Source of the DNA: a virus
DNA: 20,017 nt
IMG/VR virus record: IMGVR_UViG_3300035204_000687
Coordinates: 1-20,017 of that record
Reading direction: 5' to 3' (one strand)
The translations under genes and the position numbers were made by a program. This document shows, piece by piece, positions 6,434 to 17,476 of the stretch (its first letter is position 1; each line of letters begins with the position of its first letter). The notes beneath the pieces were generated by a model. That model did not search any database and was not told the DNA's origin. It saw only the letters and a program-made list of their open reading frames with translations.

Positions 6434-6441
6434 TATTTATT
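6434..6441 (-). promoter_or_regulatory. Late-type box AATAAATA before the 729-aa gene
   Basis: AATAAATA on the minus strand fits the T4-like late consensus NATAAATA exactly. It overlaps the TAA stop of gp17 and ends 6 nt before the ATG at 6427. A start at the usual distance would fall at or beside the initiation codon. Confidence 0.5.
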
Positions 6442-8035
6442 ATCCGTAGAAGTTTCCAAATATAGGCATTGGAGCGGTGTATTCTGAAGTTCTATCAGTC
6501 CATTTTTCGAATATTTTAGGGTCAAAATCCGCTAATACTTTCATCATACGTGTCATTAATAAACATGCACTTACTAGGTCATCGTGTTGTCCTGGTTTTG
6601 CTTTATAACTTAACCCTGTTGCAACAAAGTCTTTTAACTCAGAAATTAACAGTTTTGAATTGATTTGCATTTTACCACTTTCGACTAATTCTTTAAACTT
6701 TGTACAAGCATCAATTTTAAATTTAGCAGTTGTATTAAAGCCTCTTCTAAACTTACGTCTGTGTCCTTTTCTTATAGGTTCACTTAAAAACATACCCATA
6801 ATGTTCTCTTCACCCATATCCATTACTCTCATTAAAGCCGCTTCACCTATTGTATTATTTTCCATAGAATAAAATATTTGAGGTGTTGCTGTAGAATCTT
6901 TTTCAATAATTGTATCGTGTATATGTTTGTTAATACCTTGTAATATTCTCACTTGTTGATTCATTGGTGTCATATTATGTTGCCATTCACCTACTTGATC
7001 AAATGTAGGTAGTTCAAAAACTTGTATTGCGGCAAAGTCTCCACCTGTACCCATTGATGGATCTAAACTAACAAGATATGTCATTCCTGGTGTTGGACGT
7101 TTAAACCAACGTACTTGTCCTGTTGTTTCAACAGGTGGCACACCTTCCAAGTCTGCTAACGTTAAACTTGATATTAGTGTTTCATCAAAAATTAAAAATT
7201 CACATTCGTGTTCTCGTCTAAATCTTTCTTCACCAATTCTGGCCCTTTCTGTTTCTGCCCATGCTTCGTCTCTATCTGGATGTTCGTTCCAGTGTGCCTT
7301 CATTGCATAAAAACCGTTAGTACCTAAAATTTTGTCATTGCCATACTCGTCAAATCTTTTATTTGCTTCTTTCCATATCATAGCAAATTGATCTTCATCA
7401 CTGTTTGGTGTTGAAGTAATTAAACATTTACCTCCAGTTGACAATGTAGGAGACAGCGAAGTCCAAAACTCTTTTGCTTTTTCAGGTGGTTGTACGAACG
7501 CAAACTCATCACAATATATCATTGTTAAGGACATACCCCGTCCTGTGTTTTCTGTTGTAGTAGTTGCCATTATTTTTGAACCATTATCAAATTCTATACT
7601 GTTCCTGTTGTATTGTGTTACACCTGCTTTTATCCAACTTGGTAACATCTCATAAGCATAACGCACCCTTGACATGATATCTGATGCTCCTGCGTATTTG
7701 TGTGCGGCAATTAGTATTTGTGAATCTGGTTTAAACATGGCATACCATATTAGGTATCCTGATGCACAGGTTGTTTTTCCTGTTTGTCTTGGTAACATAG
7801 ATACTGAAAACCTGTGTGAATTATATGCTTCAATTAGCCTTTCTTGATAAGGATATGGAGTAAAATCCATTTCACCTTTAGTTGGATGTTGTATCTTCAT
7901 GAAGGTTTTCATAAAGAACAATGGACCAGTTTTATCGTCCATACACTGTTCAAGTTGTTCAACTTGTTCTTTAGTGTATTTGTGTTTCTTGTGCGCCTTT
8001 TTAATTTGGTCGCTATCTAATGATACATACGCCAT
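6440..8035 (-). CDS. 17: Large terminase subunit gp17 (packaging ATPase-nuclease)
   Basis: A 531-residue packaging motor that pumps DNA into proheads and cuts concatemers. ATPase domain: Walker A in MLPRQTGKTT (lysine 87), Walker B with catalytic acid in MIYCDEFAF (D176, E177), and coupling motif ITSTPN (about 207-211). RNase H-fold nuclease domain: SLDPSMGTGGDF (D325), FYSMENNTIG (E392), and GQHDDLVSA (D485/D486), the three acidic sites of the family. Length is a little below T4 gp17 (610). The ATG at 8035 has no Shine-Dalgarno but has an ATTAAATA box 7 nt upstream. It is separated from gp16 by three genes. Confidence 0.97.
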   Translation of the reverse strand: MAYVSLDSDQIKKAHKKHKYTKEQVEQLEQCMDDKTGPLFFMKTFMKIQHPTKGEMDFTPYPYQERLIEAYNSHRFSVSMLPRQTGKTTCASGYLIWYAMFKPDSQILIAAHKYAGASDIMSRVRYAYEMLPSWIKAGVTQYNRNSIEFDNGSKIMATTTTENTGRGMSLTMIYCDEFAFVQPPEKAKEFWTSLSPTLSTGGKCLITSTPNSDEDQFAMIWKEANKRFDEYGNDKILGTNGFYAMKAHWNEHPDRDEAWAETERARIGEERFRREHECEFLIFDETLISSLTLADLEGVPPVETTGQVRWFKRPTPGMTYLVSLDPSMGTGGDFAAIQVFELPTFDQVGEWQHNMTPMNQQVRILQGINKHIHDTIIEKDSTATPQIFYSMENNTIGEAALMRVMDMGEENIMGMFLSEPIRKGHRRKFRRGFNTTAKFKIDACTKFKELVESGKMQINSKLLISELKDFVATGLSYKAKPGQHDDLVSACLLMTRMMKVLADFDPKIFEKWTDRTSEYTAPMPIFGNFYG

Positions 8036-8052: not shown

Positions 8053-8076
8053 AAAAAATGTGTTAGGAAAACTAAC
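8053..8076 (-). terminator. Weak terminator-like hairpin after the cold-shock gene
   Basis: GTTAG (8076-8072, including the csp stop), loop TTTTC, CTAAC (8066-8062), then ACA and a run of six U (8058-8053) in minus-strand RNA. The stem is only five AU-rich pairs and an alternative pairing with an upstream CTAAC exists, so any termination would be partial. Confidence 0.3.
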
Positions 8077-8290
8077 TGTTTAAGTTAGGCCTTTGTAAAT
8101 TAACAGCACAAGGACCTTTAGCCGCTATATCTACATCAAATGTCACTTGTTGACCTTCTTTTAGACTATCCATACCGGCTGTTCTAACTGCTGATATATG
8201 AACAAATATATCTTTTTCGTCGTCTTCTCTTTTAATAAATCCAAATCCTTTGGTCGGATTAAACCATTTAACTTTTCCGTTTATACTCAT
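8072..8290 (-). CDS. Cold-shock domain protein (CspA family)
   Basis: A complete 72-residue cold-shock domain, [35 protein letters not shown], with RNP1 (KGFGFIK, residues 14-20) and RNP2 (DIFVHI, 27-32). These OB-fold proteins bind single-stranded RNA and DNA and melt structure in mRNA. Length matches bacterial CspA (about 70). There is no Shine-Dalgarno; the 23 bp before the ATG are AT-rich. It sits between an acidic structural-type gene and the large terminase. It was probably acquired from a bacterial host at some time; base composition does not stand out. It may help translation of phage mRNA or act in nucleic acid handling; neither is shown. Confidence 0.93.
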
Positions 8291-8313: not shown

Positions 8314-9504
8314 TTATTTTGCTTCTTTATCTTTAACGGCTTTTTTCATAGATTCTTTTTCGTTACCGTCTTTATCCATATCTAAAAAATCAGGTTTTGC
8401 TTTTCCTTCAGCAACTTTTGCCGCTTCTTGATATGCTTGTTTAAAACTTTCGTATTGTGTTCTTAAACTGTTTGCTAAATCTTCTTCAGTAATTTTATCC
8501 TCAACTGCCATTGGATTGTCGCCTGGATATTCTTTTCTATATTGATTTTTTTGTCTGTTCAAACCACCTGAATGTACATTTACTAAAGTGTCTACGTCCA
8601 TAGTTTTTGGTTCGTCTTTTTCACGATCGCCTGGAGAATTAGCAAACGTCTCCGCCGCTTTTTCTTCATCAGGTGCAGTCATCATGTCACGCATTTTAGC
8701 CATATCATTTGATCCAATTGCATCATCGTCTGCACCACATACGTGTCCCGGCTCACCGTGTTCTGGATTTTCACCTGCTTCTGGCTCACCACCAATCATA
8801 GATGCATCAACAGGTTTAACACCTGCAAGTTTCATAATTTGCATAAACATACCTGCTTCTTCTGGAGAATCAGTAGTTACTGTTATTGCTTCGTTTATAG
8901 ATTTTTTATCTTCTGTTGTCATTGTTTCTGTATTTAGTTCGTTTGACTCTGCTTGATCAGGATCTAATTCTTGTGATTTATACTCGTCTACGGCTTTCAT
9001 TAATACATCTTGGTCTAATTTGTTTAAAACACCAGCCATCATTCCTTTTTGTTCCATACTAAACTGGATATCTAATTTAGCACCCATATCAAAAAACATT
9101 TTAGTTCCCATAGGTGTCATTTCTTCTTTTACTTGTGGTTCAGTTGTTTGTTGTTCAGTACTTTGCATATCTGGTTCCATTTCATGTTTTCTTTTGCCTA
9201 AGTCGTCAAATTTTTCATCAACCATTCTCGCCGCTTCTTCGTATTCGTAAGATCTAGGCATTTCTGATCTTGACGCTTTTCTTTTTAAATCAGCAATCAC
9301 TTGTGATTTTGGCATTGTTAAATCGCCATCAGGACCGTCTAAGTATTCGTCTATGGCATCTGTTGCACCAATATGTATATCTGATATTCCACCAACATTT
9401 TCTACTGGATTCGTTCTTTCAACATTTTCTACAGCGTCTTTTACTAGTTCTGGTTTAGTTTCTGCGATTTCTTTAAGTCGTGTTAAAACGTCAATCATTT
9501 CCAT
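8314..9504 (-). CDS. Acidic virion-type protein with LAGV and DxDxDG motifs (396 aa)
   Basis: A 396-residue Met-, Glu- and Asp-rich protein with no enzyme signature. Features in order: [16 protein letters not shown]; a helical region (about 65-110); [31 protein letters not shown] (about 201-231); a disordered acidic stretch (about 235-300); and a C-terminus with [19 protein letters not shown] (about 371-389), where DMDKDG looks like the start of a Ca-binding loop but lacks the usual glutamate at position 12. The LAGV and KDG-KKA motifs recur in marine T4-like phage structural proteins. The site INE/A (205/206) fits the T4 gp21 prohead-protease consensus. Translation starts at ATG 9504 with AAGGAG located in the end of the preceding gene. 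Possible head-internal protein; function not established. Confidence 0.75.
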
Positions 9505-9506
9505 GA

Positions 9507-10109
9507 TTATTTTCTCCTTACCGGATCAGGATGTGGATTAGTAGGTGTTGTTAAAGGTGAATTTGCTTTTTCATCTTCTTTAGTTGTAATATTTTCTTTT
9601 TCTTTTGGCTGATCTTTATTAACTTCTCTGTCTTTTAATAATTCTTTTAACAAACTCATGTTTGCTTCGTGTGAATGAAATTCTTTTGCATCTACTTTTG
9701 GTGCATCTTTGTATTCAATGTCTTGTAATTTGTTTTTGTATTCTGATTTTCCAGCAACTGCCATTTGTTCTTGATACTCTTCACTTGGTTCATTTGGTTT
9801 TCTAACAACAATGTGTGTTGGTGGAATGTTCATATGTGTGCCTAAATATTCTTTCATCTCTATAGAAGATGCTGGATAATTTGTTGTAACATCAAAAATT
9901 GTTACTTCTTCGTTGCTTAATTGTGGGAAATCTAAAGGCATAGATTGTATCGGAGTTTTCTTTCCTGCTGACATTTTAGCAACTTCAAATTTGCCTAATG
10001 CAGTTTCCATTTTTGTTGCAAAATCTTTGCGGTTAATATCACCCGCTATTTTAATTTTGTAGTCATACGACTTTGCTGATTCTGTTAGGTAGTCTTTGAA
10101 TGTGCTCAT
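9507..10109 (-). CDS. Possible prohead internal protein with capsid-targeting-like N-terminus
   Basis: A 200-residue protein beginning MSTFKDYLTESAKSYDYK. This N-terminus resembles the T4 capsid-targeting sequence of internal proteins (IPIII starts MKTYQEFIAEA). LTE/S at 10/11 fits the gp21 prohead-protease cleavage rule (I/L-x-E before A, G or S). A compact domain follows (about 16-125: IKIAGDINRKDFATKMETALGKF, PASSIEMKEYLGTHMNIPP), then a charged disordered tail ending in PNPHPDP-like repeats and VRRK. I chose ATG 10109 because a TTG at 10115 would overlap the late-like box; the ATG is 6 nt after ACTAAATA and lacks a Shine-Dalgarno. Position between gp16 and gp17 agrees with a head role, which is inferred. 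Confidence 0.72.
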   Translation of the reverse strand: MSTFKDYLTESAKSYDYKIKIAGDINRKDFATKMETALGKFEVAKMSAGKKTPIQSMPLDFPQLSNEEVTIFDVTTNYPASSIEMKEYLGTHMNIPPTHIVVRKPNEPSEEYQEQMAVAGKSEYKNKLQDIEYKDAPKVDAKEFHSHEANMSLLKELLKDREVNKDQPKEKENITTKEDEKANSPLTTPTNPHPDPVRRK

Positions 10110-10115
10110 ATGCAA

Positions 10116-10123
10116 TATTTAGT
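10116..10123 (-). promoter_or_regulatory. Late-like box ACTAAATA before the CTS-like gene
   Basis: ACTAAATA matches the TAAATA core of the late box. It contains the TAA stop of gp16 and ends 6 nt before ATG 10109, where no Shine-Dalgarno is seen. One mismatch to NATAAATA makes promoter function uncertain. Confidence 0.35.
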
Positions 10124-10640
10124 CTTTTTTAAGTAGTTTCTTCATTAACTCATTACGGTCTGATATAACAAATCCGTCTTGTTCTTCTAAAACAGGGCCG
10201 TCTTTACCACCCTGGTCTATTTTCATTTTTTTAAGTTGTAATTCCACCATTTTTAACTTCTTATCTATTTTAGAGCCTTTAGCATCAATGGCATTACGTA
10301 ACATAGTACTTGCAACCTCAAATATACGTCCAGAATAACGTGAATCTACGTTCATTCCTAAATCCATTAAATTCTTATAACTTTCTTCTGCTTCTACAGC
10401 CAACTTATCTAATTCTAAATCTGATAGTTCACCTAGTCCTTTTACTTGTGGTAAAGCGGCCGCAACTTTGTCAAATTCAGCATAAGTTTTTTCTAAATTT
10501 TTCGCTGTTTGTGGATCTAAGTTTTTTGATTTACCGTTTACTTTGTTTTTATTTTCTTTTAATTTTTCTTTAGAATCTACTTCTTTAAATGCTTCTTTGA
10601 CATTTGGTAAATTTAAAATATCTTCTAGTTTCTTTGTCAT
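10119..10640 (-). CDS. 16: Small terminase subunit gp16
   Basis: A 173-residue protein matching the plan of T4 gp16 (164 residues), which recognises DNA and stimulates the gp17 motor. A variable N-terminal helical region leads to a central helical, coiled-coil-forming part (about 70-145; NVDSRYSGRIFEVASTMLRNAI resembles the T4 PRHMEVFATLMGQM segment). The C-terminal FVISDRNELMKKLL corresponds to the T4 segment VFMGSPTELMDEI. Assignment rests on this pattern plus location near gp4 and gp17, as direct identity is low. ATG 10640 is 8 nt after the gp4 stop, with a TAAATA core 5 nt upstream and no Shine-Dalgarno. Confidence 0.75.
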   Translation of the reverse strand: MTKKLEDILNLPNVKEAFKEVDSKEKLKENKNKVNGKSKNLDPQTAKNLEKTYAEFDKVAAALPQVKGLGELSDLELDKLAVEAEESYKNLMDLGMNVDSRYSGRIFEVASTMLRNAIDAKGSKIDKKLKMVELQLKKMKIDQGGKDGPVLEEQDGFVISDRNELMKKLLKKD

Positions 10641-10645
10641 TGTTC

Positions 10646-10653
10646 TATTTACT
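10646..10653 (-). promoter_or_regulatory. Late-like box AGTAAATA before gp16
   Basis: AGTAAATA on the minus strand includes the TAA stop of gp4 and ends 5 nt before the gp16 ATG. It has one mismatch to NATAAATA. The spacing is the same as in the perfect boxes before gp13 and the tube-fold gene. Confidence 0.35.
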
Positions 10654-11089
10654 TACGTGTGCCGTTATGAAATAATTGCTCTTCTGATAGTACTCTAAAA
10701 CGTATTTTATTTTGTTTTGCATAAGCATTTGCGGCTTCCCATTTAGCCATATTTAATGCTACTTGTTTTCTTTTAGCAAAACTTTTGCCAGCATCTATCA
10801 TGTTTGTTTGCGACTTAGGTTTCACTTCAATAAGTTCAGCGTTCTTTCTTCCGTTTTTATCTACATAAACTACAAAAAAATCTGGAACGTACACAGTATA
10901 TTTGCCTGTGAATGGATGTCTGTATGGAATTTTTATTGATTCACTTGCCCATTTTGCCACGTTAGGATGTTCGTCACATAATCTCATAAATGAGTGTTCC
11001 CAACTAGAACGGTATGTAGGAGTTTTAAGTCCAACATATTTTTCTTGATTTTTACAAGTAAATTTTCCTTTTGCGAATCGTGGTAACAT
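10649..11089 (-). CDS. 4: Head completion protein gp4 (TnsA/PD-(D/E)xK-like)
   Basis: A 146-residue homologue of T4 gp4 (also called gp50/4, about 150 residues), needed to finish DNA-filled heads before tail joining. Key stretches are FTCKNQEKYVG, YRSSWEHSFMRLCDEHPNVAKWASE, YVPDFFVVY and ELIEVKPKSQ. Glu31, Asp70 and Glu88-x-Lys90 form a PD-(D/E)xK nuclease-like set, as in TnsA-type endonucleases, so a DNA-end trimming role has been suspected for the family. The ATG overlaps the upstream stop codon (TAATG), so translation is coupled. The active-site residues look intact here. Confidence 0.87.
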   Translation of the reverse strand: MLPRFAKGKFTCKNQEKYVGLKTPTYRSSWEHSFMRLCDEHPNVAKWASESIKIPYRHPFTGKYTVYVPDFFVVYVDKNGRKNAELIEVKPKSQTNMIDAGKSFAKRKQVALNMAKWEAANAYAKQNKIRFRVLSEEQLFHNGTRK

Positions 11090-11466
11090 TAGTCTAGTAT
11101 ATTTCTAGACACAGTATCCTTTGTAGCGAGAGTTTGTCTTACACCCAACCTACTAGACTTGTATCTGTTGGCGTTAAGTATTATAGTCATTATTTCAGAA
11201 AGTTGTACATCAGTTGCACCTGACAATTTGTCAAGTACTTCTTGTGGATTTATATTATCTATTTTTGCTTGTGCGAGAATTACATATGCAGTTGATTCAG
11301 CAGATGCTCTTCCAAATCCTCTTTTTACAAAAAAGGCAATAGCGGCATCATAATCGCCAACATTAAATTGATAATCCTCTTCGTAGTGAGTTGTGGTTAA
11401 TTTTTTAATTGTTTTGTCTAAATTTGAATCATCTTTTATTGGTAAGTTTGTATATATTTCAGTCAT
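11089..11466 (-). CDS. Conserved-looking small protein of unknown function (125 aa)
   Basis: A 125-residue soluble, helical protein with no membrane span or catalytic signature. The middle (YDAAIAFFVKRGFGRASAESTAYVILAQAKIDN) looks like a helical bundle, and the C-terminus has NANRYKSSRLGVRQ and ends VSRNILD, a pattern I associate with small structural-type proteins of marine T4-like phages. It sits between a tube-fold protein and gp4, joined to both by TAATG stop-start overlaps. A virion or assembly role is therefore likely, but the exact job is unknown. Confidence 0.75.
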   Translation of the reverse strand: MTEIYTNLPIKDDSNLDKTIKKLTTTHYEEDYQFNVGDYDAAIAFFVKRGFGRASAESTAYVILAQAKIDNINPQEVLDKLSGATDVQLSEIMTIILNANRYKSSRLGVRQTLATKDTVSRNILD

Positions 11467-12854
11467 TATATATTTGCTTTCTCAGTTGTAACATTTACAT
11501 CTAATGATTGTCTAGAAATTCTTATGTAACCTTCTGTAACTAATTTTCTTATATTTGTTATTGCTTTGTTTTTATATACAGTTTGAGTAGTCGAAGATGT
11601 GTTTGCATATTCTACATCACTTTCTGCAACTGTCAGGTTTTTTCTAGAGCCGATGTCTTTATAATATAGACTCGCGGCCACTGCATCTTTGATAGTAGAA
11701 TCAGTAGTTGCAAGATTGTATGCCTCGTCTGCTGTTAGAAATTTTTTAGCATCAAATTTAGGGGAAGATATCGTTCTAGCGTTTGCTTTATTTCGTTGAT
11801 CGTTTGTACCTTTAGTGTTTGCTTTATTGATTGCGGCAAGTGCCGTTGCCCCTACAGCAAATTGAGCAATTGGATTAGTTATAAGACCTTGTTGTTTACC
11901 AACTGCAAGTACTCCTTTTTTAGCAATACCTTTTAATTCTGCTTTTACATCTCTCTTCTTCATTTTTTTAGCATTGTTATAGGTGTTTGATGCTGAAAGA
12001 ATTGCTCCAAGAATATTACCGCTTTGAAAGTTTCGAATTGTTGAACCAATACCATCTACAATACCGCCAGGACCAAATATACTATTTGTGCCTCTACCTA
12101 ACACAGTTAAAGGAGATGGTTCGTTGTCATAATTGATAGTAGCAAAACCCGGAACGGTAACTTTATTAACTATTCCTGATTTGTATATTACAGTTTCGTA
12201 AAAAACTTGCATTGTATTAGCAAGTACTCCACCACCGTCGGCATTATCAAGACTATCATGAGCAAATGAACCTATAACAGGATTTACAAGTGTCATTGAT
12301 GTAAAACGTTGTTTATGTAAAACAAAAATTTCAATACTTTTTAGATATGGTTTTTTTCTTACTGTTGGTGTATCCATTCCAAATTTTGTTACAACTTTTT
12401 GTTCTATTCCGTCATATGCATCGTCTTTAGTTGTAGATAATTGTTGGTCTGTATTCATAGCCACAGAGTCGGCAATGTAATATTCGTAATATTTTTTCCA
12501 AAAAGCATTAACTGTATCAGCATTGTCATCATGAAACACAATGTTTACAGGTTCGTAATTAATTCTAGTAGCCGCATACATTTTTTTATTGTATTGAATT
12601 TTTTCTTCCAGGTTCATTCCGTATCTCGGAAGATCACAAGACTTGACCAGCATATTAAGTTGACGTCTCTCAGCATTAGAAAATCCATCAAAGAACAATG
12701 TTTCGTCTGTGTTGAAAACTACGTGAAATAAAAATTTTTGTTTAGGTGCTAGTTTAAAATTATCGTCGAGATACAATCTCGATGCATGACGGAAGTCTTT
12801 CATTCCTGGTAGGCTGTCTTGAAACCCTTTTAAGAAATTGTTAATACTTGGCAT
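11466..12854 (-). CDS. Tail-tube-fold protein, possibly a baseplate-tube junction type
   Basis: A 462-residue protein. The N-terminal half resembles the tail-tube fold shared by T4 gp19 and gp54: FLFHVVFNTDE, LVKSCDLPRYGMNLEEKIQYNKKMYAAT, INYEPVNIVFHDD and AFWKKYYEYY. The second half has Gly-rich and basic stretches (GRGTNSIFGPGGIVDG, KKMKKRDVKAELKG) and an Ala-rich helical region. Its place right after gp19 agrees with a tube-associated or tube-initiator role, but gp54 orthology is only a guess. I chose ATG 12854 over an in-frame GTG at 12872, because the GTG lies upstream of a perfect TATAAATA box ending 5 nt before the ATG. No Shine-Dalgarno is present. Confidence 0.7.
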   Translation of the reverse strand: MPSINNFLKGFQDSLPGMKDFRHASRLYLDDNFKLAPKQKFLFHVVFNTDETLFFDGFSNAERRQLNMLVKSCDLPRYGMNLEEKIQYNKKMYAATRINYEPVNIVFHDDNADTVNAFWKKYYEYYIADSVAMNTDQQLSTTKDDAYDGIEQKVVTKFGMDTPTVRKKPYLKSIEIFVLHKQRFTSMTLVNPVIGSFAHDSLDNADGGGVLANTMQVFYETVIYKSGIVNKVTVPGFATINYDNEPSPLTVLGRGTNSIFGPGGIVDGIGSTIRNFQSGNILGAILSASNTYNNAKKMKKRDVKAELKGIAKKGVLAVGKQQGLITNPIAQFAVGATALAAINKANTKGTNDQRNKANARTISSPKFDAKKFLTADEAYNLATTDSTIKDAVAASLYYKDIGSRKNLTVAESDVEYANTSSTTQTVYKNKAITNIRKLVTEGYIRISRQSLDVNVTTEKANI

Positions 12855-12859
12855 AATGT

Positions 12860-12867
12860 TATTTATA
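12860..12867 (-). promoter_or_regulatory. Perfect late box TATAAATA before the tube-fold gene
   Basis: TATAAATA matches the T4 late promoter in all eight positions and ends 5 nt before ATG 12854. It lies directly after the gp19 terminator, so this operon has its own start point. Confidence 0.65.
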
Positions 12868-12872
12868 GCCAC

Positions 12873-17116: not shown

Positions 17117-17476
17117 ATGAACAAAACTATACGACCTTTGTGTGTGGAATGTAAAGCAAAGCCTAGAGCATATGCTTATCAGAAAGCAGGTAAAATATAC
17201 TGGCGTAGATTATGTGATACTTGTAATCGCAAAAAAGCGAAAAAAAAGGTTGGGGGAGTTACATATCTAGAACGGTCAGGATACAAAAAACTAAAAAAAT
17301 GTGAACTGTGTGGCTTTAAGGCACATAACTCATTACAATTAGATGTGCTGTTTGTAGATGGCAATTTAAGAAATACTACAGATACTAATTTAAAAACTGT
17401 TTGTGCTAATTGTCAAAGATTAAGCAGTGTGCGTAGACTCGGATGGCGTATTGGTGATCTTATTGCTGATAATTAA
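17117..17476 (+). CDS. Zinc-ribbon protein with a degenerate HNH-like domain
   Basis: A 119-residue basic protein with four CxxC pairs (CVEC 9-12, CDTC 33-36, CELC 62-65, CANC 96-99), enough for two structural zinc sites. The second half (CELCGFKAHNSLQLDVLFVDGNLRNTTDTNLKTVCANCQ) follows the HNH layout of C-x2-C, D-G-N and C-x2-C. The residues normally HH before DGN are LF-V here and the last histidine is Gln, so nuclease activity is unlikely. A DNA- or RNA-binding role is more plausible. It stands alone on the plus strand among minus-strand genes, with no Shine-Dalgarno, and its last 57 bp overlap the dNMP kinase gene tail to tail. I recall similar proteins in marine T4-like phages. Confidence 0.8.
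   Translation: MNKTIRPLCVECKAKPRAYAYQKAGKIYWRRLCDTCNRKKAKKKVGGVTYLERSGYKKLKKCELCGFKAHNSLQLDVLFVDGNLRNTTDTNLKTVCANCQRLSSVRRLGWRIGDLIADN

What the first reader, a model, noticed from the sequence alone, without database searches (positions are those of the whole stretch)
9507..10109. Candidate packaged head protein with capsid-targeting sequence
MSTFKDYLTE/S parallels T4 internal-protein leaders (MKTYQEFIAE/A) and fits the gp21 cleavage rule. If real, the rest of the protein (about 190 residues, unknown fold) is packed in the head and possibly injected into the host.
Basis: partly seen in the sequence, partly recalled or inferred. Interest (0 to 1): 0.6.

Follow-up and report, generated by a model that had tools for sequence, protein, structure and literature searches.

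The report
Phage head protein with packaging tag
A marine giant-phage relative of T4 makes a conserved particle protein that begins with the same kind of ten-residue "put me in the head, then cut me off" tag as T4's internal proteins, and its relatives kept the packaging half of the tag while several lost the cutting half.

Summary
The minus-strand ORF 10109..9507 (200 aa) starts MSTFKDYLTE|S, and T4's own ipII and ipIII genes start MKTYQEFIAE|A in the same register. It belongs to a single-copy virion-protein family (PHROG 14802) of RaK2/CBB/PA5oct-type jumbo phages and many marine relatives. It sits between the gp4/TerS-like genes and the large terminase. Homologues were found in virions of CBB (13 peptides, 60.5% coverage) and PA5oct.

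The leader looks functional. Over 39 divergent relatives the four least variable leader positions are 4, 7, 8 and 10. T4 genetics assigns 4 and 7 to targeting, 8 and 10 to cleavage. E10 and S/A11 are 39/39. The first 30 residues match PHROG 'internal head protein'; removing the leader abolishes the match. Relatives carry the S77 prohead protease and a capsid protein with the same kind of site (L-x-E). In RaK2-like phages positions 4 and 7 persist but position 10 drifts to D/S, predicting targeting without cleavage.

Targeting plus cleavage is likely; injection is unsupported. Unlike T4 internal proteins, this one is acidic, single-copy and conserved, with a predicted ferredoxin-like domain, so a structural inner-head role is favoured.

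The parts
9507..10109 (-). Candidate virion head protein, 200 aa, PHROG 14802 family (includes stop codon)
   Evidence: phrog_14802 E 2.8e-10; homologues at the same gene position in jumbo phages; virion MS of homologues CBB_210 (PMC5259590) and EST35_0202
10080..10109 (-). Putative capsid-targeting leader MSTFKDYLTE (residues 1-10), predicted helix 4-10
   Evidence: conservation; leader-dependent hit to phrog_2667 'internal head protein'; T4 leaders; helix
10077..10082 (-). Predicted prohead-protease cut E10|S11 (codons of E10 and S11)
   Evidence: E10 39/39 and S/A11 39/39 in the near clade; same kind of site in relatives' major capsid protein; S77 protease present in relatives
9801..10067 (-). 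Predicted ferredoxin-like (S6/ACT-like) domain, residues 15-103
   Evidence: AlphaFold2 block pLDDT mostly about 80-93 over residues 11-110; Foldseek and VIA-align matches to ribosomal protein S6 and ACT domains, generic fold
9510..9800 (-). Low-confidence C-terminal tail, residues 104-200, with helix 147-163 and a conserved proline-rich end
   Evidence: pLDDT 39-62 beyond residue 110
10119..10640 (-). Upstream neighbour, 173 aa, weakly similar to small terminase
   Evidence: phrog_16202 E 2.9e-14 (unknown function); phrog_445 terminase small subunit E 0.0085
10649..11089 (-). gp4-like head completion nuclease (TnsA-like)
   Evidence: phrog_218 head closure E 1.8e-41; PF08722 E 6.3e-23
8314..9504 (-). 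Downstream neighbour, 396 aa; leader [16 protein letters not shown] is a possible second protease-cut leader
   Evidence: N-termini of relatives; the gene at this place in PA5oct is a virion protein
6440..8035 (-). Large terminase (gp17-like)
   Evidence: phrog_36964 E 7.5e-109

Best explanation
The gene encodes a conserved single-copy structural protein of the phage head that enters the prohead by a T4-type capsid-targeting leader. Residues F4 and Y7 of the leader helix would bind the assembling scaffold core (inferred from T4 genetics). The protein would be enclosed when the shell closes, and the S77-type prohead protease would cut after E10, leaving a 190-residue mature protein that starts at Ser11. 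The mature protein has a predicted ferredoxin-like domain and a flexible tail, is acidic, and stays in the virion. I think it most likely lines the inside of the head or the portal region as a structural part and is not an injected effector. In the RaK2/CBB clade the same leader keeps its targeting positions but has lost its cleavage positions, so it would be targeted and left uncut there. Shown here: the sequence, family, gene order, conservation, and published virion presence of homologues. Inferred: the head interior, the cut itself, and the role.
For: (1) Same 10-residue register as T4 ipII and ipIII. (2) In T4 IPIII, residues 4 and 7 direct targeting, 8 and 10 direct processing, and Asp at 10 blocks processing but not targeting (PMC9026906). 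In 39 divergent relatives the summed entropy of positions 4, 7, 8, 10 is the lowest of all 126 sets of four among positions 2-10, with E10 39/39 and S/A11 39/39. (3) PHROG 2667 'internal head protein' matches 16 of 47 family members, best E 0.00095, aligned from residue 1. The match is lost in 6 of 6 when ten residues are removed, and it is the top hit for the first 30 residues alone in 4 of 4, including the window's (E 0.12). Ten other window N-termini do not hit it. The same profile hits T4 ipII and ipIII only over its first 14 positions. (4) Eight of nine long relatives or phages searched carry the S77 prohead protease and all nine a gp23 capsid protein; capsid N-termini carry RYLAE|QSTAGAT, RFLVE|NASAGAT, KQLME|SATNGST or MLRE|SATAGAT. 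(5) Virion MS of homologues: CBB_210, 13 unique peptides, 60.5% coverage (PMC5259590); PA5oct EST35_0202. (6) Targeting positions are kept in all 64 tree members (F/L4; Y/F/I/V7), while E10 changes seven times on the tree, all outside the window's near clade. (7) Mature pI is mostly 4.4-7.7 in relatives and 6.2 here.
Against: No N-terminal peptide or cut was observed. Virion proteomics exists only for distant homologues (25-30% identical), whose leaders lack the full cleavage motif: CBB has E10 but Leu at 11, and PA5oct has Ala at 10. None of it tells head from tail. The window's own leader hit to phrog_2667 is weak (E 0.12 from 30 residues, not reported for the full protein). That profile also rings in 5 of 14 control genomes in six-frame search. 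Conservation of a short amphipathic helix could reflect another binding partner.
Confidence: 0.7

Rival explanations
1. T4-style internal protein: the mature protein is packed with the DNA and injected into the host to block a defence or take over the host.
For: The leader type is that of T4 IPI-III, which are injected (PMC3012670; PMC9026906). Phages of this wider group show internal protein bodies in bubblegrams (phAPEC6 paper PMC7247149).
Against: T4 IPs are basic, variable and non-essential. This protein is acidic, single copy, conserved across jumbo phages with T4-like heads and fixed in the structural gene block. No defence-related match was found.
Confidence: 0.17
2. The leader is an N-terminal docking helix for another virion part (portal, neck, gp4 or shell) and is never cut, and the resemblance to the T4 leader is convergence of a short amphipathic helix.
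For: Several relatives lack a cuttable site yet keep positions 4, 7 and 8. The gene lies with gp4 and terminase genes, not with the core genes.
Against: It does not explain E10 39/39 with a small residue at 11 in the near clade, nor the leader-dependent profile match, nor the same kind of site in the capsid protein.
Confidence: 0.2
3. A tail or neck structural protein with an unrelated N-terminus.
For: Adjacent genes include tube-like and neck-type genes. Published proteomics used whole virions.
Against: PHROG files the family under head and packaging. The leader's cleavage signature would have no purpose outside the prohead.
Confidence: 0.1

Closest known systems
T4 internal proteins IPII and IPIII (capsid-targeting sequence, CTS)
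   Same: 10-residue leader in the same register: aromatic at 4 and 7, L/I at 8, E at 10, small residue at 11; leader-dependent profile match.
   Different: The mature part is unrelated, acidic, single copy and conserved. T4 has several basic, variable IPs. No phrog_14802 match in T4.
PHROG 14802 virion structural protein (CBB_210, PA5oct EST35_0202, 121Q gp557, RaK2 ORF047)
   Same: Homologous along the chain, same gene neighbourhood.
   Different: In these phages leader position 10 is E, D, S or A and position 11 is often not small, so cutting is not expected. The window clade has an intact site.
SPN3US/phiKZ ejection proteins with propeptides
   Same: Head proteins of giant phages cut by a gp21-related protease after a short motif ending in E (PMC5694885).
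   Different: Those propeptides are mostly over 100 residues. Here it is ten, as in T4.

Membership tests
PHROG 14802 virion structural protein | Profile match along the chain | tested here: met
   E 2.8e-10, residues 1-166 to profile 1-165; all 47 members match
PHROG 14802 virion structural protein | Present in virions | tested here: inconclusive
   Met for homologues CBB_210 and EST35_0202 by published MS or record notes; not measured for the window's phage
T4-type capsid-targeting sequence | About ten N-terminal residues with targeting positions 4 and 7 | tested here: met
   F/L4 and Y/F/I/V7 in 64/64 (register shifted by one in one clade); positions defined in PMC9026906
T4-type capsid-targeting sequence | Processing positions L/I8 and E10 followed by a small residue | tested here: met
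   Met in the window clade: L8 39/39, E10 39/39, S/A11 39/39. Not met in most RaK2-like members
T4-type capsid-targeting sequence | Leader alone directs a protein into the prohead and is removed | not testable with these tools
   Needs a fusion or mature N-terminus experiment
T4-type capsid-targeting sequence | gp21/S77 protease and scaffold in the same phage | tested here: met
   S77 profile over cut-off in 4 of 5 long marine relatives; gp22-position protein between protease and capsid genes. The window itself does not cover that region
T4 internal protein (IP) family | Homology of the mature part to an IP | tested here: not met
   With the leader removed no internal-protein profile is matched
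T4 internal protein (IP) family | Basic, variable, dispensable | tested here: not met
   Acidic in most members, conserved and single copy; dispensability not testable

The most novel reading that the evidence does not exclude
A conserved structural head protein shared by T4-like marine phages and RaK2-type jumbo phages is recruited by a T4-type capsid-targeting leader whose targeting half is universal, while its cleavage half has been lost repeatedly. That would be natural evidence that targeting and removal are separable, and that such leaders serve conserved structural parts and not only the variable T4 internal proteins.
Probability: 0.5. Interest if true: 0.62.

Novelty: new variant of a known kind. 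Interest (0 to 1): 0.5.

Why it matters
The capsid-targeting sequence was defined genetically in one T4 protein and is used to load foreign proteins into T4 heads. A natural family with hundreds of members shows which leader positions selection keeps, and gives natural Asp10 and Ser10 versions; T4 work predicts that Asp10 is targeted but not cut. It also gives a testable function to an annotated-as-unknown virion protein common in the ocean and in jumbo phages, and suggests annotators should look for leaders at annotated starts: in Atu_ph07 the annotated start misses it.

Tried and rejected
Other proteins with the same leader in the same genomes: none with the strict pattern among about 500 called genes of three long relatives and the window; PHROG 2667 finds none in nine genomes. 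A CTAAATA late promoter just upstream of the ATG: present and conserved, but seven matches in the window against six expected, and it overlaps the stop codon of the preceding gene, so not pursued. Function from fold: only generic ferredoxin-like matches (ribosomal S6, ACT domains), no informative relative; a sequence profile search of the PDB gave nothing credible. Pfam, NCBIfam and PADLOC gave no match for the candidate. phAPEC6 virion table: the homologue could not be assigned with certainty, so it is not counted. RaK2 and MIJ3 papers gave no explicit MS entry for the homologue.

Full report
What is there. The window is a 20 kb virus record whose minus strand carries T4-type genes: head-tail adaptor, dNMP kinase, tail sheath, tail tube, gp4-like head completion, a TerS-like gene, the candidate, a 396-aa protein, a cold-shock protein, the large terminase, a 729-aa virion-type protein, gp32 and UvsX. 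The candidate is the 200-aa ORF from 10109 down to 9507, starting MSTFKDYLTESAKSYDYKIK.

Family. It matches PHROG 14802 'virion structural protein', head and packaging, E 2.8e-10 along residues 1-166. tblastn finds 54 phage records, nearly all jumbo phages: RaK2, K64-1, 121Q, PBECO4, CBB, GAP32, PA5oct, MIJ3, Atu_ph07, Vibrio 2.275.O and others. In most of those inspected the gene sits just after gp4 and a small gene, as here; Atu_ph07 and Phosso are exceptions. More than 200 viral contigs encode close relatives, and an alignment search gives distant ones. Each of six long records searched has one copy. CBB_210 was identified in virions with 13 unique peptides and 60.5% coverage (PMC5259590), and the PA5oct record marks EST35_0202 'ESI-MS/MS'.

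The leader. T4 ipII and ipIII read from the T4 record begin MKTYQEFIAE followed by A. In the candidate family the leader is MSTFxxYLTE[S/A] in close relatives and MKSFKQFLIE|S, MKTFAEYLTE|S, MVGFKQYLAE|A, MRSFTEVLTE|S at about 40-50% identity. Agrobacterium phage Atu_ph07, very distant, has MKTLQDYLTE|S, upstream of its annotated start. T4 work showed that in the IPIII leader residues 4 and 7 carry targeting, 8 and 10 carry processing, and Asp at 10 blocks processing while still allowing targeting (PMC9026906). In 39 divergent relatives positions 4, 7, 8, 10 form the least variable set of the 126 possible sets of four; E10 is invariant and position 11 is always S or A. This test was framed after seeing the alignment, but the four positions come from independent genetics.

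Profile control. PHROG 2667 'internal head protein' matches 16 of 47 members, best E 0.00095, and wherever the coordinates were inspected the match starts at residue 1. Removing the first ten residues abolishes the match in six of six members. The first 30 residues alone have it as top hit in four of four, including the window (E 0.12), while the first 30 residues of ten other window proteins do not hit it. The profile's hits in T4 are ipII and ipIII over profile positions 1-14 only. Single E-values are marginal; the weight lies in the repeated, same-register, leader-dependent pattern.

Protease and substrate. Eight of nine long relatives or phages searched encode the S77 prohead protease over the curated cut-off; the ninth (G003) is a fragment that begins inside the capsid gene. 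All nine encode a gp23-type capsid protein. The capsid N-termini carry a site of the same kind: RYLAE|QSTAGAT and RYLSE|QATAGAT in the marine relatives, RFLVE|NASAGAT in PA5oct, KQLME|SATNGST in Vibrio 2.275.O, MLRE|SATAGAT in CBB. The cut positions there are my inference from T4.

Two halves of the leader. On a tree built without the leader, the label 'E at position 10' needs seven changes; it is constant in the window's near clade and labile in the RaK2/CBB clade (E, D, S), where position 11 is also no longer small. Some long branches (PA5oct, Atu_ph07) are placed with uncertainty, and in one clade the register is shifted by one residue. The capsid protein site in those phages still ends in E, so the protease does not seem to have changed to Asp. 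Positions 4 and 7 stay hydrophobic or aromatic in all 64 members. The simplest reading is that recruitment to the prohead is always needed and removal of the leader only sometimes.

Structure and role. AlphaFold2 with 47 sequences gives a short helix 4-10, a ferredoxin-like domain at 15-103, and a low-confidence tail with a helix at 147-163 (mean pLDDT 69.5). Matches to ribosomal S6 and ACT domains reflect a common fold and give no function. The mature protein is mildly acidic (pI 6.2; relatives 4.4-8.4), unlike the basic T4 internal proteins. With single copy, wide conservation and a fixed place in the structural block, a structural inner-head role is more likely than an injected effector. 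Injection cannot be excluded.

Literature. Searches for the capsid-targeting sequence together with RaK2, PA5oct, cyanophage, Asteriusvirus or jumbo phage found no description of such a leader in this protein; the library holds only open-licence papers.

Verdict. The packed-in-head part is likely; the injected part is unsupported.

Noticed in passing
window 8314-9504 (-): The adjacent 396-aa protein begins [16 protein letters not shown]. In most relatives the site [IVL][AS]E|[TSNG] at about residue 15 is kept, even where the following residues are deleted (MDMIDVIRRAKLVAE|GG): a possible second protease-cut leader.
   Followed up: partly
window 17117-17473 (+): A lone plus-strand HNH-endonuclease-like ORF sits between the dNMP kinase and tail sheath genes, probably a homing endonuclease (phrog_2255 E 1.8e-05). 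PA5oct carries a Hef-like homing endonuclease just after its sheath gene.
   Followed up: no
L210:2501-2587: In Agrobacterium phage Atu_ph07 the annotated start of the homologue (AUZ94910.1) lies downstream of the leader MKTLQDYLTES, so the deposited protein lacks it.
   Followed up: yes
window 11466-12872 (-): A second, longer tube-like protein (468 aa, phrog_13438 and phrog_4542 tail tube) follows the tail tube gene; extra structural genes at the same place are seen in the jumbo phages.
   Followed up: no
window 10110-10125 (-): Close relatives share the sequence GACTAAATATTGCAT directly before the ATG, with no clear Shine-Dalgarno; it overlaps the stop codon of the upstream gene, so translational coupling is possible.
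   Followed up: partly
window 8072-8290 (-): A cold-shock-domain protein gene is inserted between the 396-aa structural gene and the large terminase (phrog_729 E 3.4e-21).
   Followed up: no
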